Source: Saprospiraceae bacterium | GTDB lineage: Bacteria > Bacteroidota > Bacteroidia > Chitinophagales > Saprospiraceae | Assembly (NCBI GenBank): GCA_029263015.1 | Contig: JAJCYI010000092.1 | Span: 1 to 57,393 of the forward strand | DNA: 57,393 nucleotides | Reading direction: 5' to 3' | Shown: positions 9,308-50,399 of the stretch, piece after piece | How positions within the stretch are numbered: position 1 is the first letter of the stretch | Layout of the letters: each line of letters begins with the position of its first letter | The notes under the pieces: generated by a model | The model's input: the letters and a program-made list of their open reading frames with translations, nothing else | What the model was told of the DNA's origin: nothing | The model's database searches: none | Program-made: the position numbers and the translations under genes

Positions 9308-9368
9308 CCGGAACGTTTTTCCAATAGGGAGGGAATTTAATTCCCTCCCTATTGGAAAAACGTTCCGG
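9308..9368. repeat. Perfect 28-bp inverted repeat
   Basis: Arms 9308-9335 and 9341-9368 pair without a mismatch around a 5-nt loop. The arm begins CCGGAACGTTTTTCC and its inner end is GGGAGGGAA. It lies between convergent genes that already have a terminator at 9202-9239, so a dispersed palindromic element is the better reading. Confidence 0.85.
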
Positions 9369-33665: not shown

Positions 33666-34143
33666 GTTTTTATCAGTGTTTTGCCTGTCACAGTTATATT
33701 GGTATGTGGCATAAATTTTGACCAAAATCCTTGAATTTCCCTCCGTATTGATTTCACTTTTATTCTATCCCTCCAAGTTAAATTATCAATTATCATAGAC
33801 TGTTGATTTGTATATTGTTAGTTATCAATGGTTTGTGAGAGTAAAAGCAAAGGACTTTGAAGCCTACGTAACCCTATTCGATATTAATTCTTCCTCAATA
33901 TTAATTTTCTCCTAATCCTTTTTTGGCGGGATTCAAGGGCCATTTATTTAAGAAAAAGAACCAAAACGAAAGTTTGTAAAGCGGTTCAGCCCTGTTTTTT
34001 CCTTTGTTTTTCAGTGTAAAAAATTCACTTAAACCCAGGTTTGAAAAGAAGATTTCACTCACTATCCGATTATGTTTTGAATGGGAGGAGTTTGATCAAT
34101 GCTTACACAAACACCATCATTCAAACATCAGATTCTAACAATT

Positions 34144-37100
34144 ATGAACAAAGGGTTACTTATCGGTCTATCGATGCTGATGTACGCAGCATTTTTGCAA
34201 GCACAAAATCCAAGTGGTGATTTGCGCATTGAGATGTTTGATTATTTCAACCTTGTAGTTGACCACAATGTCCAAACGCCAGCAGGTGCTAGCCCAAAGT
34301 CTGTTTATATTGGCGTGAAAATATGCAATGATGGCAGCAATGACATGTCTGATGTCTTTGCTTTCATTGGGGATTACAATAATTCCACCCCTGGTATTTA
34401 TCCAGAAGTGACACACTCGTCAGGCCCATTTACAGGCACATTTTCATTTACACATGAAGGAGGTACGGATGATGCTACAAGGTACCTAGGCGATCTAGGG
34501 GCTGGAGAATGTATAACCCAGTATTGGTTGCTTAGCTATCCTTTGGTGGATGCGAGTAATAATAATGTAACAGGTGCCAACTCGAATCAAAATGATGATC
34601 TGCACTTAACTTACGATGTCTGGTCAACAGCCATCGATAATGGAAATCCCAGGGAAGCGGAAGACAGCAAAACGGTTCATTTACGAGCCATGCTGTCCGC
34701 GAGCGCTAATAAAATATGGCCGAACACAACCAGCAAAGTACCTAACTCATTTTTAAACTCATTTCCTGATGAAGAGCTGGGCTGGAGGATGACAACCGAT
34801 GTCACCCATCCTGGCGCTTCGGTGGTTTTGGAAGGAATCTGGTTTGACTGTGGCAATGTGAATAAAGGGTTTGACAATGATGGGGACTATCAATACGATT
34901 ACAATTTCATGTTGCAACCTGTCGGGAACCCAGCGGTATTTGACCCTAATTGTTTTCGGTTGGTCAAGGTTTCAGGCCTGATAGTAGTGAAACCAAAAAA
35001 TAGCAGTAATTATAGTTTTGAATTTGAAGACCAATTGCATTTTGAAGATTTACCTAAAAATACAGGTGCAGTAGGGATGGTGTTTTATGAATTTGCAATA
35101 ATTAATGGCCCATGTAGCGCAGACTTAACGCCGTACCAGGCAGCAGCATCTGGAAAGAACAGGGAAAAATTTAACAGTGATTTTGGGTTGACAGGTGGCA
35201 CACTTGGTTCTCTTGAACCTACTGTCGATGTTGAAGTTACTGCACCTGCTAGTGCCAGTCCAGGTGACCAAATTGAAGTCACACTCCAAGCGGACAATAC
35301 CAGTTCAGTACCTATGGGAATGCCTGAATACGGTGCACACTTAGTTATAGAAGCAGAAATTCCTTCAGGGATATCTTACACCAGTGGCTCTGCCCAAAGC
35401 AATAATTCATTGCCAGTTGGAATGACTGCGGACATCCTATATTCAACTGATAACGGAACCACTTGGCAAACCAATGAACCCTTTCCTTCGACCTCCATCA
35501 ATCTGATTCAGTGGTGGGTGAGTGACCCTTTACAGCCAACAGATAATGCGACTGTAACCTTCGATGTTAATATTTCACCTACTTATTCCAGCTCTTCCAT
35601 CATTTTTAACGGCGCGTTGTCCACGGGCAATAGAGACCCTTTTGCTACTGTTTTGGCAACGGTCAATTTGCAGGGAGGAAATTCTATCAGTGGTATCGTA
35701 TTTCTTGACGATGGTGCTGAAGGGGGGATTATTGGGAATGGTATCCAAGATGGATCGGAAGTGGGAATCCCCAGTATTTCAGTAGAATTATACAATGACC
35801 TGAATGGCAATGGCACATCCGATTACAGTGATGTCCTTGTTGCTCAATTCTCCTCTCTTGGAACTGGGGCTTTTTTATTCTCGGCTTTATCAGATGGAGA
35901 TTATGTTGTAAAAGTGGATGAAACGGATGGAGACCTTCCTGTTGGGACAATTAATACCACACCATTAGAGTATGCTGTCAATATTTCAGGTAGTGATGCC
36001 CAAGTTGATTTTGGCTTTGCAGCTATCTTGGAAGTGACTAATACACTGACCAGCAATCCGATTGTTTCAGAATCTGATTTTGTGAATTATCAGGTTCAAT
36101 TGCAAAACTTGAGCTATACCACTGATACGGACAATTCCAGTACGGTCACTGCCTGGGCGAGTGCCCTTGATCCAGCAACTAATTTTGACAACAATCCGAA
36201 TAATTTATTGGGAGCACCAGATGTAGGACTGGCATGGCCGAATAATTGGTCAAAAACTGCCAAAGTCAAGGGGTTTGATTTTGGTGTGCAGCCAGGAACG
36301 ATTGAAAAGGTGGAAATCATCATTTCCATTTGTTTGGATTATGATATTTACAATGATTATTTGACCGTATCATTTGAGAAAGAAAGTGGTGGAACGGCCT
36401 ATGTTCCGGATCCGGCTTTAAGTAAAAATTCGACACCAAGTCTTAATGATTATGTTGGCCCGCCAAATATTGGTTGGCTCATTTTGGACATCACCGACAT
36501 TCAGGATTGGGACTGGAGTGTTTTTGATGCCAATTGGGCAATTACCATGGATGGTATTGTCGTAAACAGTGATGATGGCTCCAGACAATATACTGATGCC
36601 ATTGGGGTGAGGGTGACAACTACCTGTTGTGCCAGCGAGGAGGGCGAGCCTGGCAACTGCCAATCTACGCTCACTGAATTGCCCATGGAATATGAATATG
36701 ATGAAACGAAATTGGAGTTTGTATCATCAGCCCCGCCCGCCGATGGTGTTTCAAACGGCGTGGTGACTTTCAACCAACTTGGGCCATTGTACCCAAACGA
36801 AACTAAACTGGTTGACCTCCAATTCAGGGCGCTGAACCCGCCCGTACTTGATAATAATTGTACACTCCCTGAGCCGGTGTCATATTGTACGCCACCAACA
36901 AGTGGCTATCACAATGATGTCACGATAAATGGCAATGTAAATTGGAATTCAATACTTAGCAGCGTGGATCCTTCCAATATGTATAAAAAGGTTAGGATTT
37001 CAGGTACTGGGACCGTGACTGTTCCAAGTGGTGATTTGAATTTGTCTTCCAGTAGTTCCCTTTTGGTTCTCGATGGAGTTGAACTGGTCGTTGCAAGCGG

Positions 37101-40100
37101 AAATTTAATACTTGAAAACTCGGCATGTGCCATTTTTACAAATGCAGTTTTGCGTACTTGGGGAAATATTGAACAGAAAGGAGGTTCCTATTTCTGCATT
37201 TACAGTTGTGAAGTTGAGTGTGGTGACGAAGAGTCAAACGGTTATTTCAGTGGAGGGTCAACCTCAGCCAATTTCACCAATGATGGGGGAACTCGCCATT
37301 TGGAAAATGTATGTTTGAACGTAACCCAAAACTATACGCTACTGAGTACCAGCGGTGGAAATGATGTGCTGATAAATGTATGCGCTGAAATAGGTGATCA
37401 AGGTGCTAATGATGCAGCTACCGGAATAATTGATGGATCGGACAGCGGAAGTTTTTCCACTTCCAAATCAATCAAGATTTTTAACTCAAGGATTACTGTA
37501 ATAGAAAATGTAACGGCGCAAAGTGGCGGCTCAATGGATGTCTGTGCTACCAATTTTAGAACACTTAATGGGAATTTCCAAAGTTCAGGAACCCTGGGAG
37601 GATACGACCTGGCCATTTGGGTGGATGACAGCCACACGATAGATAATAATGGTGGATCATGGGATGCCGCAATTGAAGCGAGAAGAGGAAACACCACTGG
37701 TTCTATTTCGGGCTTACCTGCTAATTTATCCGTAGTTGATATCACACCTCATTTTGAAAATTGTGCTTGCTCTGGTGATATTACGACTGGAGACCCTAAC
37801 TCTACTACAACCTTAGCCAGCGTAACAGATGCAAAAAACTGTGACGGGTTCGGATTGCCTATCTCCGATTCAGATGAAGCAGATGGCGTTACTTTAATCA
37901 ATTTGGGTTCAGTTACTGGTTATGTATTTGGCGATTCGGATAATGATGGGTGGCAAGGCATTTATGGCTATGAAAATGGTACAGACAATTTTATCCCAGG
38001 TGTCGAAGTCAACTTATATGGCTGTTTTGATGACAATGGTGATTTGATTTACGATAATGCATCTGTTACCAAAAGATGTACCCATGGCTGGAATGATGGG
38101 CATTGGGAATTGGTGGAATCAGATACCACAGATGCAAATGGAATCTATCGGATGGCAGGAATTGACAACGGTTATTATTATCTTGAAATTGATGAAACGA
38201 CCTTGACCAACGCTGCCGATCAAACTGCTGACCCAGACGTAACAAACGGCCTTGCCGGACAATGGGCTGATAAGCGTTGGAAAGACCCCAACGAAGACCT
38301 GCGCGATATGGGGATTATAGGTATTGGTAATGACCATACTCAAATCAATTTTGGATATTATATTCTGACAACAATTGCAGGAGTGGTGTGGAACGATATA
38401 AATGGAGATGGCGTGAAAGACCCTTCTGAACCTACGATCCCAAATGTTCCTGTGGAATTCAACCACAGTGGCTGCACTACAGGATCGAACTGTGCGGTTC
38501 GATATACAAATGGGCAGGGGGAATATGAGTTGACCACAGCAGTTGCAGGGGTTAATTACAATTTATCAGTTGACCTCAACAGTGTGCAAGGCGCAGATAC
38601 TTGGATCATTACATTCGAATCAGATGGTACGACTGATAACTCGAACGCCATTACCGTTTCCCAGGGTCAACAGGTTTTCAATGTAGATTTTGGACTGCAA
38701 GCATCTGGGCCATTAAACATGGGTGGAACTGTTTATTTTGATTGGATTGGAAATGCCCACCAGGATGCAGGTGATGAAGGGATGCCTGGTGTTAGAGTTC
38801 AATTATACAAAGACAATAACCAAAATGGTTCGGTACAGCCATCTGACCAATTGGTCCAGACAATTGTCACGGATATCAATGGAGCCTATTTGTTTGCAAA
38901 TAAACCTTCTGACAGTTACGTCATCACGCTTGATGAAAGCTCCGTACCTATTTTCCCCAAACAAACAGAAGACCCTGACGAATATGGTCCTTGTACCGTT
39001 TGCGATGCTAAAACAGCGGTGACTACTACAAGTGACAACTTTATTGTGTCTATCACAGATGTTTGGGATTACTACAATGCTTTCAATTCTGGCTGTGAAA
39101 TATGTGATGAAGGATATACCTCCAGTTCTGATCCTCCATACATCAGCAATGATCTTGACCTCATAGATTTTCAGGATCCGATCAATGATCCTGGAGCTTG
39201 TGTGACGGAATTGGTGGTGACATTCAATATTGCTGCTTCTGATATTGAAAAAAGTTACAATACTGCTTATGTCGACAATGTAGAATATTTTTACCCGATC
39301 GAACTGAACGGTGTGCAGATAGGGACTTTCAACCCTACTGAATTGCCGTATTGGTGTGGCATCTGTGAAAGTATTGAGGTGGTTTTTCCTGTTGACCTAA
39401 ATGTCATTCCTTATAATTTTGGAGGAACGAATACCTTGGACATTAATTTCAGGTCTTATAATTTGACACTGCCGAGCAATCAAAGGCAGGATATGTGTGT
39501 GGCAGATATCAAAATGGAGTTTTTGGCTACTAATTGTTCCACCGATTATTTAACCCTTGATTTTGGATATGAACCGACTGGTGGGACAGGTGAAATAATT
39601 GGGTATGTGTTTCTGGATGACAATGCAAATGGCGTACAAAACAACGGTGAAGAAAGAATAGGGGAAGTAGAAGTAAGGTTGGAATGCGATCTAAACAAGG
39701 ATGGAGTTTTTAATTGGGTTGAAAGTACCGTGACTGACAATATCGGAAATTTGAGTTTCAACGAGTTGTTGGATGGTGATTATAAGATAGTGGTGAATGA
39801 AGTGGATTCGGATTTGCCGATCGACTATACCGGAGCACCTGCTCAACTCACCACCCTTGGCAATCAATCATGTGAGATTGATAACTTTGAATTGGTCGAA
39901 GTGAATGGTTTGCCGTGCTCTGGGCCATGCGACACTGAGCAGCCTGCCTTTGGATTTGCCATGCCTGGGGCAGCTACAGGATATGTGTTTTCTGATGACA
40001 ATGGTAACGGCACACAAGACGAAAAGGAACAGGGTCTTGGAAATGTTGACCTATACATTTGCAATGCTGTAGATGGTTTTTGCAACGCCACCAATGCGCT

Positions 40101-43100
40101 AGACACAGTCTCGTCGGCAAACGGAGCAGGCATTGAACCAATGGGGTTTTACATATTTGCAGGGCTTCCTGCAGGGAATTATGTGATTGCCGTTGACCAA
40201 CCATCAGTCCCAACTGGTTACGAACTGACCGCTGATCCGAGCACGGATGGCATTCCTTGTTATTCGCCGCTGGATGTTTCCGATCCAAATTTTGCTTTCC
40301 TCACCGCCGAGTGCGACCATGAGACCAATGGTATTTCCATTTCTTTGGGGTCACAATATACAGGAGCTAATTTTGGCTACAAACCTCCTGGTGTTATTGG
40401 TGGCCTGGTCTGGTTTGATGACAATGAAGATGGGGTCATTGATGATGACGAAGATGGTTTGGAAGAAATAAAACTGGAATTGACCAATCTAACTGCGGTG
40501 ACAATTGCTTGGGTACTCTACAATCCAGGTGAATATGTGGCTGAAAAATATTCAGACATTGATGGCAACTATGTTTTTACAAATATGCCAGATGGCAGCT
40601 ATCAGATTGAGGTAGAATTGCCAACCGATTATTTTTTGACGTTTGATGCCGATGGGGTTTTGGACAATATTACCCAAGTTGTAATCAGCGGTGGAGATGT
40701 TACAAACACAGGTAATCCCTGGTGTGCCAATTCTGATTGTTCCTTGGAGGTCGATTTTGGAATGTCCCCTAATTTTATCAATACTTTAGCAGGAGTAGTC
40801 TGCCTTGATGGAGATGAAGATGGCCGCTGTGATACTGGTGGAGAAACATTCCCGGAAGGGACTGAAGTTTCCATATTTGACCTTTCGGGAATTTCATTTG
40901 GTGAAACGACTGCCGCAGCAGACGGAACTTTCTTTTTTGACAATTTACCAACGGCTGACATGGTCGTATCTGTTTCTAAAACAGTTGCGCCACTGCGCCT
41001 TACATCGCTTACTACTTCGTTGGGGGATACCCCGGCTTATGATATAATTGACAGTGATAACAACGCCATCCAATATGTTTCGGTTAGTGGTGCTATTACT
41101 AACATGCACAATGGTTTTACGTTTAGTGACACTTTTGATTTGGGCGACTTGCCAGCGCCGTTTTTGACCAGGGCAGATGGAGCCAGCCCTGGCCCTGCTC
41201 ACATTATTCCAGCCATACCGACCCTGTACTTGGGTGCTGCCATAGACGCCGAGGTAACGCCGACTATCTCTGTGGATGCTGATGGTGACGATAATTCAGG
41301 TTTGGACGACGAAGATGGCGTAACATTTACAAATGCAGGAACTTGGGTAACAGGAGCTGGTGGCGGCGGTTTGTCCGTTGTTGTAAATGGAAATGGCTAC
41401 CTCGTCGGATTTGCTGATTTCAATGTAGATGGTGATTTTGATGATGGTGGGGAAATGATATTGAATGAAACAGTAGCCCCAGGAACCTATAATTACAATT
41501 TTGATATTCCAATCGGGACTGACCTCAGTGGCGGACAGGATTTTTATTTAAGGTTTCGATTGTTTGAGAATGCACCTTTCTCTGCCAGTACTTCTTATAA
41601 TGGAATAACTGACAATGGAGAAGTAGAGGATTATATGGTTTCCGTTTGTAAAAACTTGGCAGATGCTGGAACTGTTAGTGGGGCCGAAACAGGGTGTAAT
41701 GGCTACGATCCTTCTAATATTTCTGAAACATTGGCTGTTTCCGGAGGTGGAGGTAATATTGAATATTTATGGGAAGAAAGTACGGATGGTGGGCTAACAT
41801 GGTCAGTAATTGTAGGTGCCACCAGTGCTTCTTTCGATCCAGGCGCCATTATTCTGACGACCCGTTACCGAAGAGGTGCAAGGCGTTTCCGTTGTGCAGC
41901 TTATATTTATTCAAATGCGGTAATCAAAACAGTCGTTACCAACTACACCAATGCTGGACTCATTGTTGGGGACGAAGATAATTGCGGCATTTTTGATCCA
42001 GACCTGATCTTGAACGTGATCGCTCCGAGCGGAGGTACTGGCACAACTTCCCCTTTTTACCAATGGGAACAAAGCATTGATAATGGGAATACATGGGGCA
42101 CAATCTTAAATGCGAATGAGGAATTCTACAATCCAGGTGTAATTAGTCAAACCACACTCTACAGGCGGGGCGCCCAGAAAACGCCGTGTGCCGTTTTCCT
42201 TTATTCCAACGTTGTCACAAAAATGGTTTCTGTAAATTATATTGATGCAGGAAGCATTGATGGTGATGAGTCGGTTTGTGGTACTTTTGATCCTACACTA
42301 ATCACAAGTTTGTCATTGGCGTCAGGTGGCGTGGATGGTTTTGAGATGATGCTGTGGCAGGAAAGCACAAACAATGGTGCCTCTTGGTCCGACATTCCTG
42401 GAGCAACCAATGCAACCTATAATCCAGGCCTTATTTCCCAAACAACTTGGTACAGAAGAAAATCCAGACGGGTGCCCTGTGTTGTATGGGTCAATTCAAA
42501 TGTTGTGACCAAAACGGTCAGGCCATTTCCAACAGCTAATATTTTAACCTATCCGATCAGTGCCAGTGGGTACTTGTGCGAATTGACAGGATACGATTTT
42601 GAGGCTGAAGATGCAGGTGCAAATGTTGCGTATTCTTGGGATTTTGGTGCTTATAGTACCCCGTCAGCAGCTTTAGGACAGGGTGCCCATCAAGTTGAAT
42701 TTGATGTGCCCGATAACATTGCGTTGACTTCTACCATTGTCACGCTAACGACCAGCATGGATGGATGTGTTTCTAATGATAATAGGGTATTGACGTTCAG
42801 GCCAGAAATAATAATTGATAGCATTTCAACACAAAACCCAACCATGTGCCTGACCAACGATGGTATTATTTGGGTTCATGCCACTTATCCCACAGGGACA
42901 ACGATAGAATATAGTGTGAATGGTGGTATCACCTGGAATATTAGTTATGAAACGAATAGCCTTGCAGCTGGGGTTTACGATGTAAGAGTCCGGTATCAAG
43001 GAGGAGATTGTGTTGAATCTTATGGTATCGTGGCACTTTCCGACCCGCCCCCACAAGCCGATCTGTTGGTTTCCTCAAGTGAAGAATGTACAGGACAAAC

Positions 43101-46100
43101 TGTAACAATCGAAGCAGTGCCTACCAACGGAAGTCCAGTGTTCACTTGGGCATTTGGAAATGGAGCGATACCTAATACTGCTTCTGGTGCAGGGCCGCAC
43201 AGTGTCTATTTTACCAATGGAGGCTACGCAAGTATAGCTGTTACTATGATAGAGAATAACTGTGTCGGGGTACGCGATACTTCAATTTCAATAGTGGAAA
43301 ACTACTCTGACGGAGGAACGGTATTGGGAGGCGAAACCCTTTGCAGTACGTTCGACCCAGCAAATATTGTTGCCGGGGCCAATCCATCTGGTGGCACAGG
43401 AGGCACATTGGTTTACCAATGGGAAAACCGGGAAGATGACGGTGCCGGAGGTTTCACAGCTTGGGGAGATGTCGTTGGAGCAAATTCAGCTTCATACGAT
43501 CCCAGTATTATTGGTGCAACAACTGAATTCCGAAGAAAATCAAGAAGGGCACCATGTGCCAATTGGGTAGCTTCCAATACCGTCTTGGCATTATTGGTAC
43601 AAAAACCCAATCTTATTGATGATAATTACGCTACTGTCTGTCCTGGGTTTGCTTATGCAGATAATGTGAGCGATAACGACCTTGACTTGGTTAACCCAAC
43701 ATACAGCTTACTTGTTTTTCCAACCAATGGAACACTTGATTTTGAAGTAGATGGGGAATTTATTTACGATCCAAATTCTACTTATTGCGGTACGGACGAA
43801 TTCCAATATTTGGTTTGTAATGATGGCACGGGATGTTGCGACACCGCGCAGGTCATCATTGATTTGACCGACAATAATCCTCCTACTATTCTGAATGTAC
43901 CAAGTAATCTGACCATTAGCTGTGACGACCAAATACCTGTGGCGGACGCTGTCGATGTAGTTGAAGATTGTCAAACTGTTTCGATTGGCACTGACCAAAT
44001 CTCTACTCAAGGGGTGGATAGTTGTGCGTTGAACAATTACCAGATAACCAGGATTTGGAAAGGGGTAGATTATTGTAGCAACACTGCCACTTCCCAGCAG
44101 GTAATTGTAATTGAGGACAAAACAAGTCCAGACATTTACAGGATATACACTTTGCCCAACGGCCAACGCATGGTAGCAGGGGTAATGGAAAACGTCTCAA
44201 ACCACTGGAAGACAATCAGTTTGCCGATCCAGTTTAGTCAGCAGCCGGTGATTTTCACACAACTGACTACCCGGAACGATGCCACGCCAGCAGTTGCCCG
44301 TTTGCGGAATGTTTCAACCACACAGTTTCAATTGAAATTGCAAGAGGAAGAAGGGAATGATGGGGTTCATGCAAAGGAAAGCGTGGCCTGGGTTGCATTT
44401 GAAAAAGGAATATATAACGGTACGAATCCATTTGAGGTAAATACCTGGTTGCTTACGAGTAGCCCAACCAATAATCCCTTTAATAATAGCTATGCCTCAA
44501 CGCCAGACTTTTTCTTGAACATTCAGTCAAACAATGAAATAGATCCAGCGAATCCAAGGGTTCAGAACCTTTCAAATATTGGTGTGGATGCTTGGATCAG
44601 CGAGGAAACTTCTTCTGATGGTGAAATTACCCACAACATTGAAACAGTGGGATATTTGGCCATGCTCGGAACAGGTAATATTACCAACAATGCTGGTGAA
44701 GTGATTGGCGAATTGGGTAGGGTTGACCTGACCAATGTTAGCTTACATATCGACTTTTTAAATGAATACCATAATCCAGTAGTCGTTATCGGTGCAATTG
44801 GATTAAATGAAAATGATCCTGTGACAACTAGGGTAACAACAGTAACCAACACGGGATTTGATGTTTATCTCGACGAATGGGATTACTTGGATGGGGTTCA
44901 CGGCATCGAAAACTTGAGCTATTTGGTTGTTGAAGGGAGCCTGCCGCTGAACCAGACAGTAAATTGTGATGGGGTACCAGAACCTTTACACATTGGTACA
45001 CAGATAATTGCAGTGGATAATTGCGATGCGACTATCCAATTATTGATGACAGAAAATGATCTTGATTTTAATTGTCAATCCGATACTACTTTTTCAAGGA
45101 CCTGGACTACGGTCGATGACTGTGGTAATATTACCACACTGATCGAGACCTATATTTTGTTAGACACCGTGCCACCGACTTTTACCGTTCCAGCGAGCTT
45201 GACCATCGTTTGCAACGACGATAAAGATGACCTTGCATTGACTGGGGATGTTCCGGATGAGCTGGACAATTGTTCGGAAGTAGTTACAGTGGTGTATTCA
45301 GACAACTTAGATAATTTAATAAGCTGTAACGGCTATATCGAACGAACTTGGACAGCGACAGATAATTGTGGCAACCAGACCATCAAGACTCAACTGATTT
45401 ATGTCTCACCTGAAGAAGATACTGACAGGGATGGAACAGTGGATTATTTTGATTTGGACGATGACAACGACGGAATCCCAGATTTGATCGAAACAAATGC
45501 CGATGCTGATGGAGATGGTATTCCCAACGACAAGGATTTGGATTCTGATAATGATGGTATTCCTGATATCATTGAAATTGGTGGGACTGACATCAACGGA
45601 GATGGAGTCGTTGACAATGTGGGTGAAGACAATTGGGACAACGATAACGACGGTTTTGCTTTTGGTTTTGATGGAAACGATATTGACCCTAGTGTGGTCG
45701 CATCAGTTGTACTCAATCCCTTAAGTTTGGAAAATGACCGGGATGGCGATGGAGTATCAAATTTCATAGATCGGGATAGTGACAATGACGGCATTCCAGA
45801 CTTGGTAGAAATAGGTGGTGTTGATACAGATGGAGACGGAGTCATCGATTTTCCAGTTCTCACAGACCCGCTGACTATGCAGGACAATGACAATGATGGT
45901 TTTGCAGATATTTATGATCCTGACATTGACAACCTGCCAGGAATAGAAAGCCCTGACAAGCCATTGGTTATTTATGATGGCTCAAATTATTCTGGTGGAC
46001 TCAGTTCTGACCAACCCGACAATGATGGCGACATGGTGCCTGACTTTTTTGATAGTGATTCAGACAATGATGGTACAGGGGATTTAATTGAGGCTGGAGG

Positions 46101-47787
46101 AATAGATGTCAACGGAGACGGACGGCTTGAATTGACAGCTTCTTTTATTGACCTAAATAATGATGGATTCAGTGACATTTATGTCAGCTTCCCATTGGTT
46201 TTTACTGATGGAGATGGAATAGTAGTAGATGGCCGTCCAGAAGATATGGATGGTAACGGCACTGTATATGAAAGTGGGGACATTGACCAAGATGGAAGCC
46301 CAAACCACCATGATTTGGATAGTGACGGTGACAATATTATAGATATTCTCGAAACGGGGCTTGCTGTCCACGATGGAGATGGAGATGGTATTTGGGATAA
46401 TTGGACGGATACCAATCTCAATGGATATGATGATGAAGCTGAAGCTTTGGGCAATATTATGACAGAAGGTGATGGGGCAAACCTAGATGGGCGAGCGGAA
46501 GATAGTGGAGACGCAGATGAAACGGCCTATTTAGGTGCACAACCAGACGGGACTTTCGCCGAAGCAAATGGCAATCCAGATATTGATGATGATGCAGATG
46601 GCCTGCTCAATTTCCTCGATACCGATTCTGATAATGACTTTTTGCCCGATGGCGTTGAAGATCAAAACCACAACAATATTCAAGATGAAGGGGAAACAGG
46701 TATTTATAACCCTGATTCAGATTTTGATAATATTTTGGATGGTATTGAAGATCACAATCAAGATGGGGTTTACTCTCGTGGTGAGACCAATCCTTTGAAT
46801 CCGAATACAGACGGGGATGGACTCCAAGATGGAGAAGAAGATTTGAACGGCAACGGAATAATTGATCCAATTGAAAGTGATCCTACCAATGCATGTGATC
46901 CAGTTTTGAATGAAGCTTGTCGTGGAATAGTTTTGGACATTAAAGTCAAGTTGTTAGGGGCCTTGGTTGACCAAGATTCAATTGGCTTGATGCGGGACGA
47001 CCTTCGGTTCAAGAAAAAAATTCCATACGAGGAACCATATACTGGCATTGTCCACCTGGCCCATTTTGGAGAAGATAATATTCCTGAATACAACGATCCA
47101 AATGGGGGAGGGGGCAACAATGAGCCTCCAAACAGCGGGGGTGGCCTTTTTAGAGAATCATTCGACCTTGGCATGATGTACGTCACGGGAACCGATGCTC
47201 CGGTAGATTGGATATTGGTGGAACTGAGGGCTGCGAGCAATCCCGATAGTATTGTCGCTACCAAAGCAGGGTTACTGCAAAGGGACGGTGACATCAGGGA
47301 CGTGGACGGGCTGGCTTATGTGACATTTGATAATGTGTCGAGTGGTAATTATTATGTGGCCGTGCGCCATAGGAACCACTTGGGCATTATGTCTGCATCG
47401 CCTTATTTATTGTCACCAGATGTTGCTGAGATTGATTTTACCAAAGTAGAGACTGAGGTGTATGGTGAAAATTCCAGAAGTAGTCTTGGAGGTATAATGT
47501 CGCTGTGGGCAGGTGATTTGAATGGGGATGGCAACATTATATATCAGGGTCAATTGAACGACGTACTACCACTCTTCATAAACATTGTTTTAGATGGAAC
47601 GAATGCTGATCTATTAGCCAACTTTATAGTCAGTGGTTACAATGTCGCAGATTTCAACCTTGATGGTGATGTGATTTTTCAAGGCCCCAATAATGATAAA
47701 GCAAAACTCTTGATCTATTCTGTATTGGGTTCACCTGAAAACTCATTACAGTTGGCCAATTTTGTATTGATGGACAAGTTGCCGTAA
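34144..47787 (+). CDS. Giant secreted mosaic adhesin-like protein with dockerin-like C-terminus
   Basis: About 4547 residues. ATG 34144 is chosen because it begins a signal peptide (MNKGLLIGLSMLMYAAFLQAQ); an ATG 45 nt earlier would bury it. Order by nucleotide: N-terminal region and DUF11-like segments (to about 36830); a repetitive beta-helix-like part (36890-37770); eight SdrD_B-like units starting near 35685, 37908, 38368, 38713, 39590, 39969, 40390 and 40781 (GYVFxDDNxNG wording); a GEVEDY domain (41137-41655); four units of about 95 residues with an RRxxRRxPC-type motif (41656-42520, 43304-43590); HYR-like domains (43883-44130, 44946-45410) around a duplicated lectin-like insert (44130-44945); TSP3-like calcium repeats (45418-46910); and two dockerin-like loops (47505-47784). 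There is no T9SS sorting domain. Probably a calcium-stiffened surface or matrix protein (inference). Confidence 0.9.
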   Translation: MNKGLLIGLSMLMYAAFLQAQNPSGDLRIEMFDYFNLVVDHNVQTPAGASPKSVYIGVKICNDGSNDMSDVFAFIGDYNNSTPGIYPEVTHSSGPFTGTFSFTHEGGTDDATRYLGDLGAGECITQYWLLSYPLVDASNNNVTGANSNQNDDLHLTYDVWSTAIDNGNPREAEDSKTVHLRAMLSASANKIWPNTTSKVPNSFLNSFPDEELGWRMTTDVTHPGASVVLEGIWFDCGNVNKGFDNDGDYQYDYNFMLQPVGNPAVFDPNCFRLVKVSGLIVVKPKNSSNYSFEFEDQLHFEDLPKNTGAVGMVFYEFAIINGPCSADLTPYQAAASGKNREKFNSDFGLTGGTLGSLEPTVDVEVTAPASASPGDQIEVTLQADNTSSVPMGMPEYGAHLVIEAEIPSGISYTSGSAQSNNSLPVGMTADILYSTDNGTTWQTNEPFPSTSINLIQWWVSDPLQPTDNATVTFDVNISPTYSSSSIIFNGALSTGNRDPFATVLATVNLQGGNSISGIVFLDDGAEGGIIGNGIQDGSEVGIPSISVELYNDLNGNGTSDYSDVLVAQFSSLGTGAFLFSALSDGDYVVKVDETDGDLPVGTINTTPLEYAVNISGSDAQVDFGFAAILEVTNTLTSNPIVSESDFVNYQVQLQNLSYTTDTDNSSTVTAWASALDPATNFDNNPNNLLGAPDVGLAWPNNWSKTAKVKGFDFGVQPGTIEKVEIIISICLDYDIYNDYLTVSFEKESGGTAYVPDPALSKNSTPSLNDYVGPPNIGWLILDITDIQDWDWSVFDANWAITMDGIVVNSDDGSRQYTDAIGVRVTTTCCASEEGEPGNCQSTLTELPMEYEYDETKLEFVSSAPPADGVSNGVVTFNQLGPLYPNETKLVDLQFRALNPPVLDNNCTLPEPVSYCTPPTSGYHNDVTINGNVNWNSILSSVDPSNMYKKVRISGTGTVTVPSGDLNLSSSSSLLVLDGVELVVASGNLILENSACAIFTNAVLRTWGNIEQKGGSYFCIYSCEVECGDEESNGYFSGGSTSANFTNDGGTRHLENVCLNVTQNYTLLSTSGGNDVLINVCAEIGDQGANDAATGIIDGSDSGSFSTSKSIKIFNSRITVIENVTAQSGGSMDVCATNFRTLNGNFQSSGTLGGYDLAIWVDDSHTIDNNGGSWDAAIEARRGNTTGSISGLPANLSVVDITPHFENCACSGDITTGDPNSTTTLASVTDAKNCDGFGLPISDSDEADGVTLINLGSVTGYVFGDSDNDGWQGIYGYENGTDNFIPGVEVNLYGCFDDNGDLIYDNASVTKRCTHGWNDGHWELVESDTTDANGIYRMAGIDNGYYYLEIDETTLTNAADQTADPDVTNGLAGQWADKRWKDPNEDLRDMGIIGIGNDHTQINFGYYILTTIAGVVWNDINGDGVKDPSEPTIPNVPVEFNHSGCTTGSNCAVRYTNGQGEYELTTAVAGVNYNLSVDLNSVQGADTWIITFESDGTTDNSNAITVSQGQQVFNVDFGLQASGPLNMGGTVYFDWIGNAHQDAGDEGMPGVRVQLYKDNNQNGSVQPSDQLVQTIVTDINGAYLFANKPSDSYVITLDESSVPIFPKQTEDPDEYGPCTVCDAKTAVTTTSDNFIVSITDVWDYYNAFNSGCEICDEGYTSSSDPPYISNDLDLIDFQDPINDPGACVTELVVTFNIAASDIEKSYNTAYVDNVEYFYPIELNGVQIGTFNPTELPYWCGICESIEVVFPVDLNVIPYNFGGTNTLDINFRSYNLTLPSNQRQDMCVADIKMEFLATNCSTDYLTLDFGYEPTGGTGEIIGYVFLDDNANGVQNNGEERIGEVEVRLECDLNKDGVFNWVESTVTDNIGNLSFNELLDGDYKIVVNEVDSDLPIDYTGAPAQLTTLGNQSCEIDNFELVEVNGLPCSGPCDTEQPAFGFAMPGAATGYVFSDDNGNGTQDEKEQGLGNVDLYICNAVDGFCNATNALDTVSSANGAGIEPMGFYIFAGLPAGNYVIAVDQPSVPTGYELTADPSTDGIPCYSPLDVSDPNFAFLTAECDHETNGISISLGSQYTGANFGYKPPGVIGGLVWFDDNEDGVIDDDEDGLEEIKLELTNLTAVTIAWVLYNPGEYVAEKYSDIDGNYVFTNMPDGSYQIEVELPTDYFLTFDADGVLDNITQVVISGGDVTNTGNPWCANSDCSLEVDFGMSPNFINTLAGVVCLDGDEDGRCDTGGETFPEGTEVSIFDLSGISFGETTAAADGTFFFDNLPTADMVVSVSKTVAPLRLTSLTTSLGDTPAYDIIDSDNNAIQYVSVSGAITNMHNGFTFSDTFDLGDLPAPFLTRADGASPGPAHIIPAIPTLYLGAAIDAEVTPTISVDADGDDNSGLDDEDGVTFTNAGTWVTGAGGGGLSVVVNGNGYLVGFADFNVDGDFDDGGEMILNETVAPGTYNYNFDIPIGTDLSGGQDFYLRFRLFENAPFSASTSYNGITDNGEVEDYMVSVCKNLADAGTVSGAETGCNGYDPSNISETLAVSGGGGNIEYLWEESTDGGLTWSVIVGATSASFDPGAIILTTRYRRGARRFRCAAYIYSNAVIKTVVTNYTNAGLIVGDEDNCGIFDPDLILNVIAPSGGTGTTSPFYQWEQSIDNGNTWGTILNANEEFYNPGVISQTTLYRRGAQKTPCAVFLYSNVVTKMVSVNYIDAGSIDGDESVCGTFDPTLITSLSLASGGVDGFEMMLWQESTNNGASWSDIPGATNATYNPGLISQTTWYRRKSRRVPCVVWVNSNVVTKTVRPFPTANILTYPISASGYLCELTGYDFEAEDAGANVAYSWDFGAYSTPSAALGQGAHQVEFDVPDNIALTSTIVTLTTSMDGCVSNDNRVLTFRPEIIIDSISTQNPTMCLTNDGIIWVHATYPTGTTIEYSVNGGITWNISYETNSLAAGVYDVRVRYQGGDCVESYGIVALSDPPPQADLLVSSSEECTGQTVTIEAVPTNGSPVFTWAFGNGAIPNTASGAGPHSVYFTNGGYASIAVTMIENNCVGVRDTSISIVENYSDGGTVLGGETLCSTFDPANIVAGANPSGGTGGTLVYQWENREDDGAGGFTAWGDVVGANSASYDPSIIGATTEFRRKSRRAPCANWVASNTVLALLVQKPNLIDDNYATVCPGFAYADNVSDNDLDLVNPTYSLLVFPTNGTLDFEVDGEFIYDPNSTYCGTDEFQYLVCNDGTGCCDTAQVIIDLTDNNPPTILNVPSNLTISCDDQIPVADAVDVVEDCQTVSIGTDQISTQGVDSCALNNYQITRIWKGVDYCSNTATSQQVIVIEDKTSPDIYRIYTLPNGQRMVAGVMENVSNHWKTISLPIQFSQQPVIFTQLTTRNDATPAVARLRNVSTTQFQLKLQEEEGNDGVHAKESVAWVAFEKGIYNGTNPFEVNTWLLTSSPTNNPFNNSYASTPDFFLNIQSNNEIDPANPRVQNLSNIGVDAWISEETSSDGEITHNIETVGYLAMLGTGNITNNAGEVIGELGRVDLTNVSLHIDFLNEYHNPVVVIGAIGLNENDPVTTRVTTVTNTGFDVYLDEWDYLDGVHGIENLSYLVVEGSLPLNQTVNCDGVPEPLHIGTQIIAVDNCDATIQLLMTENDLDFNCQSDTTFSRTWTTVDDCGNITTLIETYILLDTVPPTFTVPASLTIVCNDDKDDLALTGDVPDELDNCSEVVTVVYSDNLDNLISCNGYIERTWTATDNCGNQTIKTQLIYVSPEEDTDRDGTVDYFDLDDDNDGIPDLIETNADADGDGIPNDKDLDSDNDGIPDIIEIGGTDINGDGVVDNVGEDNWDNDNDGFAFGFDGNDIDPSVVASVVLNPLSLENDRDGDGVSNFIDRDSDNDGIPDLVEIGGVDTDGDGVIDFPVLTDPLTMQDNDNDGFADIYDPDIDNLPGIESPDKPLVIYDGSNYSGGLSSDQPDNDGDMVPDFFDSDSDNDGTGDLIEAGGIDVNGDGRLELTASFIDLNNDGFSDIYVSFPLVFTDGDGIVVDGRPEDMDGNGTVYESGDIDQDGSPNHHDLDSDGDNIIDILETGLAVHDGDGDGIWDNWTDTNLNGYDDEAEALGNIMTEGDGANLDGRAEDSGDADETAYLGAQPDGTFAEANGNPDIDDDADGLLNFLDTDSDNDFLPDGVEDQNHNNIQDEGETGIYNPDSDFDNILDGIEDHNQDGVYSRGETNPLNPNTDGDGLQDGEEDLNGNGIIDPIESDPTNACDPVLNEACRGIVLDIKVKLLGALVDQDSIGLMRDDLRFKKKIPYEEPYTGIVHLAHFGEDNIPEYNDPNGGGGNNEPPNSGGGLFRESFDLGMMYVTGTDAPVDWILVELRAASNPDSIVATKAGLLQRDGDIRDVDGLAYVTFDNVSSGNYYVAVRHRNHLGIMSASPYLLSPDVAEIDFTKVETEVYGENSRSSLGGIMSLWAGDLNGDGNIIYQGQLNDVLPLFINIVLDGTNADLLANFIVSGYNVADFNLDGDVIFQGPNNDKAKLLIYSVLGSPENSLQLANFVLMDKLP

Positions 47788-47850: not shown

Positions 47851-47956
47851 AATGTTGGATATTTTTACTCATTTGATAATTTCTTGCAATAAAAATATAA
47901 AACAAAAAAACACAGAAGTGGGACTACGTCTGTGCGTCGTTAAAACTTATTATGGA

Positions 47957-48009
47957 ACAGCGTAAAAACGCAATAGCCCCGAATAGGGGCTATTGTGTTT
48001 TTACGCTGT
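47957..48009. terminator. Long hairpin, probable terminator for the minus-strand gene
   Basis: A 24-bp stem with one G-U pair (47957-47980 with 47986-48009, inner arm CAATAGCCCC, 5-nt loop) lies 25 nt beyond the stop of the convergent minus-strand DUF2231-like gene. The arms carry internal A- and T-runs. It may serve both directions. Confidence 0.7.
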
Positions 48010-48034
48010 TATATTACGGCCTTGCTTTGACTGC

Positions 48035-48541
48035 CTAATCGTCATCGTCATCATGTCGGTCAATAATCCCGTTGCCGGTTTCTCCCTGAAAACCGGTATT
48101 GTTTTCCCTGATTTCAGAATGGCGGATTTGCCCGCCCAAGTTGCCGACTTTCGCAAAAACCCCAAAGGTGGCCAATGAAATAAGCAAGGTGATAAATGTA
48201 ATTGCCTTTGCAAAGGATAATTCCTTGACTATGCCAATAAAACCAATAAGGGAAAATACACCTAACAGCCCCATAAGCCAAATTGCCTTTTCAGCCAATT
48301 CTTCGTGTTCTTCTATAATATTCTCAGAAATACCAGCAATTTGCTCGACAGATTCTTCCGCTTCTTCTCCCGTTAAAAAAACGGGTATTGTCAAAATTGC
48401 CATTAAAATAAATATAACCAGCGCCACCTTTTTTGTGGTGTTGTTATTTGAATACTGGCCATGAGCCAAAATCCCGATCCCGATTAAAGTTCCTATGATC
48501 GGGAAATGGGTCAATACTAAATGAACATGTGTTAAATCCAT
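48035..48541 (-). CDS. DUF2231-like small membrane protein
   Basis: A 168-residue inner-membrane protein with four hydrophobic helices at about residues 10-28, 38-57, 86-105 and 111-130. The N-terminus DLTHVHLVLTHFPIIGTLIGIGILA and the GGQIRHSEI motif after the last helix match the DUF2231-type membrane proteins of Bacteroidota. The His of HLVLTHFP and of RHSEI could bind metal or haem, but that is a guess. It ends in a run of Asp (DRHDDDDD). The next gene upstream on the same strand starts 42 nt away, so they may form a two-gene operon. Confidence 0.72.
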   Translation of the reverse strand: MDLTHVHLVLTHFPIIGTLIGIGILAHGQYSNNNTTKKVALVIFILMAILTIPVFLTGEEAEESVEQIAGISENIIEEHEELAEKAIWLMGLLGVFSLIGFIGIVKELSFAKAITFITLLISLATFGVFAKVGNLGGQIRHSEIRENNTGFQGETGNGIIDRHDDDDD

Positions 48542-49164: not shown

Positions 49165-49231
49165 CAAAGATAAGTTTTACCTGCCAAATTGAAAATTGAT
49201 TTTTCAATTTGGCAGGTAAAACTTATCTTTG
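49165..49231. repeat. Perfect 31-bp palindrome with outward -7 boxes, at the 5' end of the ATPase gene
   Basis: Arms 49165-49195 and 49201-49231 are exact reverse complements around a 5-nt loop (TTGAT). The outer 8 bases of the right arm are TATCTTTG (49224-49231); the left arm holds the same box on the minus strand (49165-49172). Both match TAnnTTTG and point outward. The right box ends 4 nt before the ATG of the AAA_14 gene, so a transcript from it would begin at or next to the ATG. Confidence 0.92.
49224..49231 (+). promoter_or_regulatory. -7 box (TATCTTTG) that implies a leaderless transcript
   Basis: With the TTTG ending at 49231 and start sites about 4-7 nt further on, transcription would begin about 49235-49238; the ATG is 49236-49238. 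There is no room for a ribosome-binding site after that point. A TTG at the -33 spacing is not present, so activity is unproven. Confidence 0.45.
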
Positions 49232-49235
49232 CTGC

Positions 49236-50399
49236 ATGATTGAAAGACGTTTGACCGGAATCCTGCTTAGAGATCTGGAATGGTCGCCCATTCTGGGCTT
49301 GGTTGGCCCTCGACAAGTTGGGAAGACCACCTTGGTGAGGCACCTGCAAACATTGATTGAAAAACCATCCCTTTACCTCGACCTCGAATTGGCATCCGAC
49401 CTCCAAAAGCTCAATGACGCTGAGTACTACCTCTCTGGCCATGCTGAAAAATGCGTGCTGATTGACGAGGTGCAAACTCGCCCCGAGCTCTTTCCTTTGC
49501 TTCGCGCACTGACCGACCAAAGCAGAAAGCCTGCGCGGTTTATTTTGTTGGGTTCGGCTTCGCCGTATGTGGTCCGGCAAATAACGGAAACCCTTGCCGG
49601 GCGGATCGCATACCATGAACTGGCACCTTTTTCCTTTTCCGAAATCAGTACTCTTTATTCGATGGAAGAACATTGGTTCAGGGGTGGCTTTCCGAGATCG
49701 CTTTTGGCAGGAAAACCTTTTATTGCCCGCAAATGGATGGCTGATTTTATCGAAACCTTTGTACATAGAGACTTAGCAAGGCTCGGCTTCCAAGTGCCTG
49801 TTACGCTTATCCAGCGCATGATTTCGATGCTGGCGCACTTGCATGGAGGATTGTTGAACCTCAGCAATTTGGGCAAATCGCTTGGTATAACGCACCCTAC
49901 TGTCAACAAATACCTCGAACTGTTGGAAGGCAGCTTTCTGGTCCGGCGCTTGCCACCTTATTTCCCGAACCTTGGCAAGCGTCTTGTCAAAACGCCCAAA
50001 ATTTATTTGCGTGATACTGGTTTGCTGCACCACCTGCTGCACATCAATGATGCGGAACAGCTCAAAGGGCATCCTTCTATCGGTGCATCCTGGGAAGGTT
50101 ATGTCATCGAGCAGATCATTCGGGAAGCCCCGGAGTTTACTGAATTTTATTTTTACCGCACCAAAAGTGGGGCAGAAGTGGATCTCCTCCTCATCACTTC
50201 CAGCGGTAAGATGGTCTGTTTAGAAATAAAGTATTCGGTGGCTCCTTCCATTTCAAAAGGCTTCTTCGTCAGCCTCGAAGACCTGAAACCCGACTACCGT
50301 TTTGTCATCATCCCTTCAGGTGAAACCTACTCGCGCTCTGAGGGCATTAAAATTTGTCCGTTGGGCCATTTCCTCGAAAGGGAGTTGAAAAACCTGTGA
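49236..50399 (+). CDS. AAA_14 / DUF4143 ATP-binding protein with nuclease-like C-terminus
   Basis: A 387-residue protein. ATG 49236 is preferred; a TTG 27 nt earlier lies inside the palindrome. The N-terminal AAA domain has Walker A GPRQVGKT (24-31) and Walker B VLIDEVQ (Asp77-Glu78), then RFILLGSASPYVVRQITETLAGR. A winged-helix-like segment (LLNLSNLGKSLGITHPTVNKYLELLEGSFLVRRLPPY) leads into DUF4143. Near the end SGAEVDLLL (Asp316) and CLEIK (Glu330, Lys332) match the PD-(D/E)xK nuclease pattern. The family is abundant in Bacteroidota and archaea, often in many copies per genome, and its role is unknown. Base composition does not stand out from the neighbouring kinase gene. Confidence 0.93.
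   Translation: MIERRLTGILLRDLEWSPILGLVGPRQVGKTTLVRHLQTLIEKPSLYLDLELASDLQKLNDAEYYLSGHAEKCVLIDEVQTRPELFPLLRALTDQSRKPARFILLGSASPYVVRQITETLAGRIAYHELAPFSFSEISTLYSMEEHWFRGGFPRSLLAGKPFIARKWMADFIETFVHRDLARLGFQVPVTLIQRMISMLAHLHGGLLNLSNLGKSLGITHPTVNKYLELLEGSFLVRRLPPYFPNLGKRLVKTPKIYLRDTGLLHHLLHINDAEQLKGHPSIGASWEGYVIEQIIREAPEFTEFYFYRTKSGAEVDLLLITSSGKMVCLEIKYSVAPSISKGFFVSLEDLKPDYRFVIIPSGETYSRSEGIKICPLGHFLERELKNL

What the first reader, a model, noticed from the sequence alone, without database searches (positions are those of the whole stretch)
49165..49238. Perfect 31-bp palindrome with outward promoter boxes abuts an AAA_14/DUF4143 gene
The palindrome has no mismatch, and each end is a TATCTTTG box (TAnnTTTG, the Bacteroidota -7 consensus) pointing outward. 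The right box ends 4 nt before the ATG, so the mRNA would have little or no leader. This family exists in many copies in Bacteroidota, has a PD-(D/E)xK-like end, and its function is not known. A palindrome tied to the gene start could be a mobile cassette end, a site the protein itself binds or cuts, or an autoregulated promoter. It is the best candidate here for an undescribed system.
Basis: partly seen in the sequence, partly recalled or inferred. Interest (0 to 1): 0.72.

Follow-up and report, generated by a model that had tools for sequence, protein, structure and literature searches.

The report
Self-recognising promoter palindrome of ATPase-nuclease gene
A palindrome in front of an uncharacterised ATPase-nuclease gene appears to be the DNA site that the gene's own protein reads, and comparing relatives suggests which amino acids read which bases; this gives a first foothold on a very common candidate defence gene of microbes.

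Summary
The palindrome is real: 31-bp arms without mismatch, 5-nt loop, ATG 4 nt beyond. It is one case of a family-wide feature. AAA_14/DUF4143 genes carry a 39-bp inverted repeat of two 12-bp half-sites over the core promoter near the start codon (score >=25: 129 of 201 genes, 2 of 402 shuffles, 8 of 559 control genes), in many bacterial phyla. Its sequence differs between genes and tracks the protein. Residues 310-311, at a hairpin tip beside the nuclease motif, covary with outer bases; residues 219-221, at the start of the winged-helix recognition helix, with inner bases. Most pairs hold on a masked tree; 310-311 also in 28 held-out genes; clade splits agree (five of six scorable). From five residues the window's protein ranks its own site above all 176 decoys. 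The protein therefore very probably reads its own promoter; autorepression is the likeliest role. ATPase and nuclease residues are nearly invariant, so cleavage is open. Mobile-unit ends mapped in two plasmid groups lie outside the palindrome. PADLOC calls the family PDC-S01, a common phage-defence candidate.

The parts
49165..49231 (.). whole palindrome, arms 49165-49195 and 49201-49231, loop 49196-49200
49179..49217 (.). 39-bp core shared with the gene family (two 12-bp half-sites ACCTGCCAAATT); 18 nt lie between core and ATG
49179..49190 (+). left half-site
49206..49217 (-). right half-site
49165..49178 (.). 14-bp extension, left; holds TATCTTTG on the - strand (49165-49172); extension of this length seen in 1 of 184 sites
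49218..49231 (.).
49236..50399 (+). AAA_14/DUF4143 ATPase gene (387 aa), matches PADLOC PDC-S01 models
49890..49898 (+). codons 219-221 (T-H-P), start of the winged-helix recognition helix; covary with inner site bases 12-14
50160..50168 (+). codons 309-311 (T-K-S), tip of the hairpin before E314/D316; 310 and 311 covary with outer site bases 3, 5 and 6 (309 shows no co-change on the tree)
50175..50231 (+). E314, D316, E330, K332: nuclease-type motif; D316, E/D330 and K332 all intact in 254 of 259 members

Best explanation
The palindrome is the recognition site of the very protein encoded behind it. A dimer (or larger assembly) binds the two half-sites head to head. In each half the winged-helix recognition helix (residues 219-221) reads the inner bases, and the hairpin tip beside the nuclease motif (residues 310-311) reads the outer bases. 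Because the site covers the core promoter and often reaches the start codon, binding blocks RNA polymerase and keeps the gene low. SHOWN by computation: the conserved site, its fixed geometry, its link to the gene, and residue-base covariation. INFERRED: physical binding, dimer state, repression, leaderless transcript. UNKNOWN: what lifts repression, and whether and where the protein cuts DNA.
For: Site score >=25 in 129 of 201 genes, 2 of 402 shuffles, 8 of 559 control genes, six of these 8 having the same half-sites as the DUF4143 site of their locus, read from another ORF. Span 39 in 141 of 190 sites though 35-41 was allowed. MI top pairs: 311-pos3 z 16.7, 221-pos13 13.6, 220-pos12 12.0, 221-pos14 11.0, 310-pos6 10.7; 20 label shuffles reached 8.2 at most. 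Co-changes on a tree with these residues masked: 311-pos3 21 against 6.0 expected, 221-pos14 17 against 4.4. Hold-out: pos3 right in 37 of 54 half-sites, 0 of 2000 shuffles as good. Five-residue model AUC 0.935; window's own site above all 176 decoys; own site first for 6 of the 7 own-genome paralogues that entered the model. TATAAT-like hexamer (4 or more of 6) at -14 to -12 in 41 of 64 sites that reach the start codon; no shuffle control. Genes without the palindrome often carry direct repeats instead: 22 of 67, controls 38 of 543, which fits a protein site rather than a hairpin.
Against: No binding or expression data were made here. Some pairs are weak on the tree: 220-pos12 p 0.06, 225-pos15 p 0.07; 309-pos2 p 0.7. 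Paralogue L032 ranks its own site 4th of 7. In the hold-out all 4 half-sites with S311 have A or C, not T, and both with R311 have T, not G. Only 8 of 18 own-genome paralogues have the site at score >=22; 38 of 259 genes score <15. Five of 15 sites in 49 genomes lie away from any DUF4143 gene. Near-invariant catalytic residues are not needed for a pure repressor.
Confidence: 0.76

Rival explanations
1. The palindrome is foremost the target of an ATP-gated, site-specific nuclease. The own-promoter copy is bound but spared, and incoming DNA carrying the same site, such as a sibling element, is cut.
For: ATPase and nuclease residues are nearly invariant. The outer-base-reading residues sit beside the nuclease motif. 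PADLOC places the family as phage-defence candidate PDC-S01. Homologues are found on 370 of 72,556 plasmid records.
Against: No cleavage data. Why the host site would be spared is unexplained. In viral contigs 75 stretches hold the CTTGCAAWT form, but 35 of 75 share one recurrent sequence inside the site and only 1 lies near a DUF4143 gene, so there is no sign of targets there.
Confidence: 0.3
2. The palindrome is the end or attachment site of a mobile cassette.
For: Three of 256 genes (L131, L192, L237) have a second copy just 3' of the gene. Five solo sites exist. The gene moves: 7 genus-mates keep the neighbour gene and none has DUF4143 in the fetched stretch beside it.
Against: In Thermus the recurrent ends are 98 nt 5' and 46 nt 3' of the gene, the site lying at -39 to the ATG. 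In Agrobacterium they are about 53-72 nt 5' and 166 nt 3', the site lying at -38 to the ATG. The site's position is tied to promoter and start codon.
Confidence: 0.07
3. A host regulator, not the protein, reads the site.
For: The constant AAAT part overlaps promoter elements.
Against: Paralogues within one genome have different sites that follow each protein (6 of 7). The same residue-base pairs are found again in disjoint clades.
Confidence: 0.03
4. It works as an RNA hairpin or as a terminator of the upstream gene.
For: Long hairpins are common in this genome.
Against: Downstream regions of the same genes lack them (score >=15 in 5 of 98, against 30 of 99 upstream). Likely transcription starts lie inside or after the right half (inference). 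Some members use direct repeats. Covariation with protein residues.
Confidence: 0.04

Closest known systems
PADLOC PDC-S01 (phage-defence candidate)
   Same: The window protein matches seven PDC-S01 models, best E 8.7e-87. PMC12988326 (passages seen) calls it the fourth most common defence across all prokaryotes, with an ATPase domain fused to a PD-(D/E)-X-K member.
   Different: The passages seen say that validation is pending for most such candidates; they mention no palindrome, operator or recognition residues.
RptR, autorepressor of a defence island (PMC12255303, passages seen)
   Same: Represses its own promoter through palindromic sites overlapping the -10 box.
   Different: RptR is a helical homodimer reading 6-bp palindromes; here a 387-aa AAA+ ATPase with winged helix and nuclease-type domain would read a 39-bp site.
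Archaeal ATPases SSO1545 (2fna) and PABY2304 (2qen)
   Different: The match does not cover the nuclease motif region; any DNA site of theirs was not examined.
Orc1/Cdc6-type initiators (recalled: they bind repeats near their own gene)
   Same: AAA+ plus winged helix; ORC chains are among the Foldseek matches.
   Different: No origin function was tested; each gene here has its own site sequence; a nuclease-type motif is present.

Membership tests
AAA_14 / DUF4143 (Pfam) | scores above both Pfam cut-offs | tested here: met
   DUF4143 158.2 bits (cut-off 28.1), AAA_14 93.2 bits (cut-off 27)
PDC-S01 (PADLOC) | match to PDC-S01 models | tested here: met
   seven models, best E 8.7e-87
PDC-S01 (PADLOC) | anti-phage activity | not testable with these tools
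PD-(D/E)xK nuclease superfamily | D ... (E/D)xK motif | tested here: met
   D316, E/D330 and K332 all intact in 254 of 259
PD-(D/E)xK nuclease superfamily | fold | tested here: inconclusive
PD-(D/E)xK nuclease superfamily | DNA cleavage | not testable with these tools
autorepressor with palindromic operator | inverted repeat over the gene's own core promoter | tested here: met
   promoter elements are consensus matches, not mapped
autorepressor with palindromic operator | sequence of the site follows DNA-reading residues of the protein | tested here: met
   for residues 310-311 also the hold-out
autorepressor with palindromic operator | binding and repression | not testable with these tools
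mobile element with palindrome as terminus | element ends coincide with the palindrome | tested here: not met
   recurrent ends of homology lie outside it in Thermus and Agrobacterium plasmids; tested there only, not at the window locus

The most novel reading that the evidence does not exclude
AAA_14/DUF4143 proteins are ATP-gated palindrome nucleases with a modular two-domain recognition code: recognition-helix residues 219-221 for inner bases and nuclease-hairpin residues 310-311 for outer bases. Each carries its own cognate site in its promoter, which serves as sensor and self-tag: while bound there the enzyme is silent and repressed; incoming DNA with the same site titrates or activates it. 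The family would be a diversified self/kin-exclusion or defence system whose targets can be read from protein sequence.
Probability: 0.25. Interest if true: 0.93.

Novelty: new variant of a known kind. Interest (0 to 1): 0.84.

Why it matters
The family is among the most abundant candidate defence genes of bacteria and archaea (PMC12988326, passages), and the passages seen list it among candidates most of which await validation. This work gives it a DNA target, a likely regulatory circuit and residues to mutate. A protein that reads DNA with both a winged helix and the hairpin of a nuclease-type domain, with base choice largely predictable from five residues (AUC 0.935), would also be a compact natural specificity code. 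It makes the question 'what does PDC-S01 act on?' directly testable.

Tried and rejected
Copies of the window palindrome elsewhere in its genome: none convincing; beyond the site itself the best match had E 0.03. Plasmid DNA search with the palindrome: no match. Long hairpins as such: too common in this genome to argue from. Viral contigs: 75 stretches carry the CTTGCAAWT form, only 1 near (142 nt) a DUF4143 gene; 35 of 75 share one recurrent sequence, probably one phage gene (not checked), so this neither supports nor maps targets. Loose pattern in 398 genomes of the phylum of G242: 27 sites (reversed-pattern control 2); of the 24 read, 7 lie 1 nt before a DUF4143 start and 17 do not; 3 were not read. 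'-' strand loci of the genome search are not turned round; my first reading of some hairpins as 3' of the gene (note) was wrong and was put right. My notes give 28 sites; the right count is 27. Base-exact empty site of the window gene: not obtained, relatives are too far. Right flanks of L352-L355 were not found by exact match; I rely on the BLAST ends. Literature, listings and abstract starts only unless said otherwise: DUF4143, COG1373, AAA_14, PF13635, PF13173, PDC-S01, SSO1545 and combinations; no paper shown ties this family to a palindrome, but one search showed 15 of 3,362 papers and one search showed 20 of 61, and most subscription papers are outside the library. The structure job for the C-terminal domain had not returned.

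Full report
WHAT IS THERE. The palindrome is exact: 31-bp arms (49165-49195, 49201-49231), 5-nt loop, no mismatch. TATCTTTG lies at each outer end, pointing outward. The gene starts at 49236 and encodes 387 aa with AAA_14 and DUF4143. Three simulated windows gave no hairpin above 11, but 400 kb of the same genome hold 5 hairpins of 30 or more, and 2 of 270 genes there have one within 150 nt upstream. So the question is whether this hairpin belongs to this gene family.

OTHER MEMBERS. The genome holds 18 callable paralogues (L030-L046 and L048, L047 being the same gene as L046). Eight of the 18 have the site described below at score 22 or more; several others have different palindromes, and some have none. 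In 99 genes from the genome, relatives and the phylum, an upstream hairpin scoring 15 or more occurs in 30 of 99; downstream it occurs in 5 of 98. Nine protein hits without a usable P-loop or start were dropped.

THE SITE. With 201 distinct genes (209 called; duplicates and those with under 90 nt upstream dropped), a half-site model of 12 bp was fitted. Spans of 35 to 41 were allowed; of 190 sites 141 took 39 and 32 took 40; in 50 of 190 the last base of the site is the first base of the start codon. Score 25 or more: 129 of 201 genes, 2 of 402 shuffles, 8 of 559 other genes in the same loci; six of those 8 have the half-sites of the DUF4143 site of their locus, seen from another ORF. A model-free count gave the same picture: 11 or more of 13 outer pairs in 128 of 201 genes, 28 of 1005 shuffles, 14 of 559 controls. 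In 400 kb of the window's genome no site of score 33 or more was found; in 1.16 Mb of DUF4143 loci there were 97, of which 94 lie within 150 nt of a called DUF4143 start and 3 at the 3' side of such a gene. Conversely, a pattern of the site in 49 genomes (those of 49 of the 80 loci) gave 15 sites, 10 of them 1 to 16 nt before a DUF4143 start (reversed-pattern control: 1 site); the other five show no DUF4143 homology in the fetched stretch, 1.5 kb either side except about 0.2 kb on one side of L240. In 398 genomes of the phylum of one of these, 27 sites were found (control 2). I read 24: 7 lie exactly 1 nt before a DUF4143 start. These 7 are the strict sites (CTTGCAAWT in both halves) of span 35-36; one more strict site, of span 32, was not read.

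THE WINDOW'S SITE. The core is 49179-49217, half-sites ACCTGCCAAATT twice, span 39, 18 nt before the ATG. The remaining 14 bp on each side, which hold the TATCTTTG boxes, are peculiar to this gene: no other of 184 sites extends beyond 6 bp. Most sites are not perfect palindromes: the median is 14 of 19 pairs and 9 of 184 are complete. In 64 sites that reach the start codon, a TATAAT-like hexamer (4 or more of 6) sits at -14 to -12 in 41 (no shuffle control), so the site covers the core promoter and the transcript may lack a leader (inference). In the window the right TATCTTTG ends 4 nt before the ATG, which suggests the same.

WHO READS IT. Mutual information between protein columns and site bases was computed on 151 sites and then on 144 span-39 sites with inner bases included (the 58 hold-out genes were added in between). 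The best pairs were residue 311 with position 3 (z 16.7), 221 with 13 (13.6), 220 with 12 (12.0), 221 with 14 (11.0), 310 with 6 (10.7) and 219 with 14 (8.0); 20 label shuffles reached at most 8.2, so 219-14 alone would not stand by this measure. In the predicted structure (pLDDT 94.4) 220-232 is a helix in the place of a winged-helix recognition helix, and 309-313 is the turn between the strands 303-309 and 314-320 that lead to E314 and D316. The pairs read like a code: 311 A, G or V with T, N or Q with A, H or K with G, D mostly with C (23 of 38 half-sites); 310 H with A at position 6, N with AC at 5-6; 220 H with G (43 of 48), D with C (14 of 14), Y with A (12 of 12); 221 P with AA (66 of 76), K with GG (47 of 56).

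CONTROLS ON THAT. (a) Hold-out: 60 new regions gave 58 new genes; 28 had a site and under 80% identity to the first set. Rules for 310 and 311 were written down first (note); for a few rarer residues they were completed in the script before scoring. Position 3 was right in 37 of 54 half-sites (shuffled mean 0.29, 0 of 2000 as good), position 5 in 45 of 50 (3 of 2000), position 6 in 36 of 42 (36 of 2000). Misses include all 4 half-sites with S311 and both with R311. (b) Tree: with these residues masked, changes fall on the same branches more than expected: 311 and position 3, 21 against 6.0 (p 3e-10); 221 and 14, 17 against 4.4 (p 8e-9); 221 and 13, 15 against 4.4 (p 8e-7); 310 and 5, 8 against 1.7 (p 2e-5); 219 and 14, 10 against 3.5 (p 7e-4); 310 and 6, 9 against 3.4 (p 0.002). 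Weak or absent: 220 and 12 (p 0.06), 225 and 15 (p 0.07), 309 and 2 (p 0.7). Sixty random columns at each of five positions gave no p under 8e-4. In an earlier run with residue classes, 22 of 23 joint changes went in the predicted direction. (c) Prediction: with proteins of 50% identity or more removed, five residues rank the own site with AUC 0.935 over 180 sites; random columns give 0.46-0.64. The pairs had been picked on much the same data, which (d) guards against. The window's site ranks above all 176 decoys. Of 7 own-genome paralogues with a site of span 38-40, 6 rank their own site first; L032 ranks it fourth. (d) Nested splits, pairs chosen in one set of clusters and tested in another: AUC 0.78-0.885 in five of six splits; the sixth had no decoys. 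311-3, 220-12, 221-13 and 221-14 were chosen in all six.

NOT A HAIRPIN AS SUCH. Among 67 genes with site score below 20, 22 have direct repeats upstream, 14 of them at 22, 23 or 32 bp; control genes 38 of 543, genes with the palindrome 23 of 192. Half-sites in direct order suggest a protein-binding site.

MOBILITY. The gene moves. Seven genus-mates keep the neighbour gene and none has the DUF4143 gene in the fetched stretch beside it (up to 1.5 kb either side); the 70% identical copy in G009 lies elsewhere. Homologues are on 370 of 72,556 plasmid records. In Thermus, homology ends recur 98 nt 5' and 46 nt 3' of the gene, with the site, a weak one of score 23.7, at -39 to the ATG; in Agrobacterium about 53-72 nt 5' and 166 nt 3', with the site (score 36.5) at -38 to the ATG. 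The palindrome is inside these units. For 3 of 256 genes a second copy lies just 3' of the gene, unexplained.

FUNCTION. Simplest reading: the protein binds its own promoter and shuts it. But D316, E/D330 and K332 are all intact in 254 of 259 members and the Walker residues K30 and D77 in 258, so ATP use and probably DNA chemistry are under selection. PADLOC lists the family as PDC-S01. PMC12988326 (passages) counts it as the fourth most common defence across all prokaryotes, with validation pending for most such candidates. In T. thermophilus HB27 one AAA_14/DUF4143 gene, TT_P0211, rose 6.6-fold with a plasmid present, only when Argonaute was present (PMC4406477, section 7 read); I did not examine that gene's upstream region.

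CLOSEST KNOWN. RptR shows that autorepression by palindromes over a promoter occurs in defence islands (PMC12255303, passages). Structurally the first 269 residues match SSO1545 and PABY2304. The library searches showed no paper tying this family to a palindrome, within capped lists.

Noticed in passing
window 9308-9368: 30-bp perfect hairpin with 1-nt loop, 131 nt after a subtilisin-like gene and before a convergent VWA-like gene (names by eye); looks like a terminator; not picked up by the DUF4143-site scan.
   Followed up: partly
window 47956-48010: 25-nt-arm hairpin between the 4562-aa protein gene (34099-47787) and the gene at 48035-48541.
   Followed up: no
L238, L240, L243, L246, L250: Five DUF4143-type sites without DUF4143 homology in the fetched stretch; L240, L246 and L250 are near-perfect palindromes; L238 lies 125 nt before an ORF that looks like an AbiEi-type antitoxin by eye.
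   Followed up: partly
L131 2187-2225, L237 5217-5254, L192 5189-5226: Second copy of the same kind of site just 3' of the DUF4143 gene in 3 of 256 genes.
   Followed up: partly
L045, L110, L156, L286, L308, L321, L327, L333: Members with tandem direct repeats upstream (often about 22 or 32 bp apart), a possible second site architecture.
   Followed up: partly
L344 with L352-L358 (Thermus plasmids): DUF4143 gene lies in a unit of about 1.3 kb with recurrent homology ends; several plasmids keep only 3' parts of the gene ending at the same base.
   Followed up: partly
L349, L350 (Agrobacterium, Rhizobium plasmids): The DUF4143 gene sits near a site-specific integrase in a modular region whose module boundaries recur in many plasmids; neighbours include VapC-type and Fic genes.
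   Followed up: no
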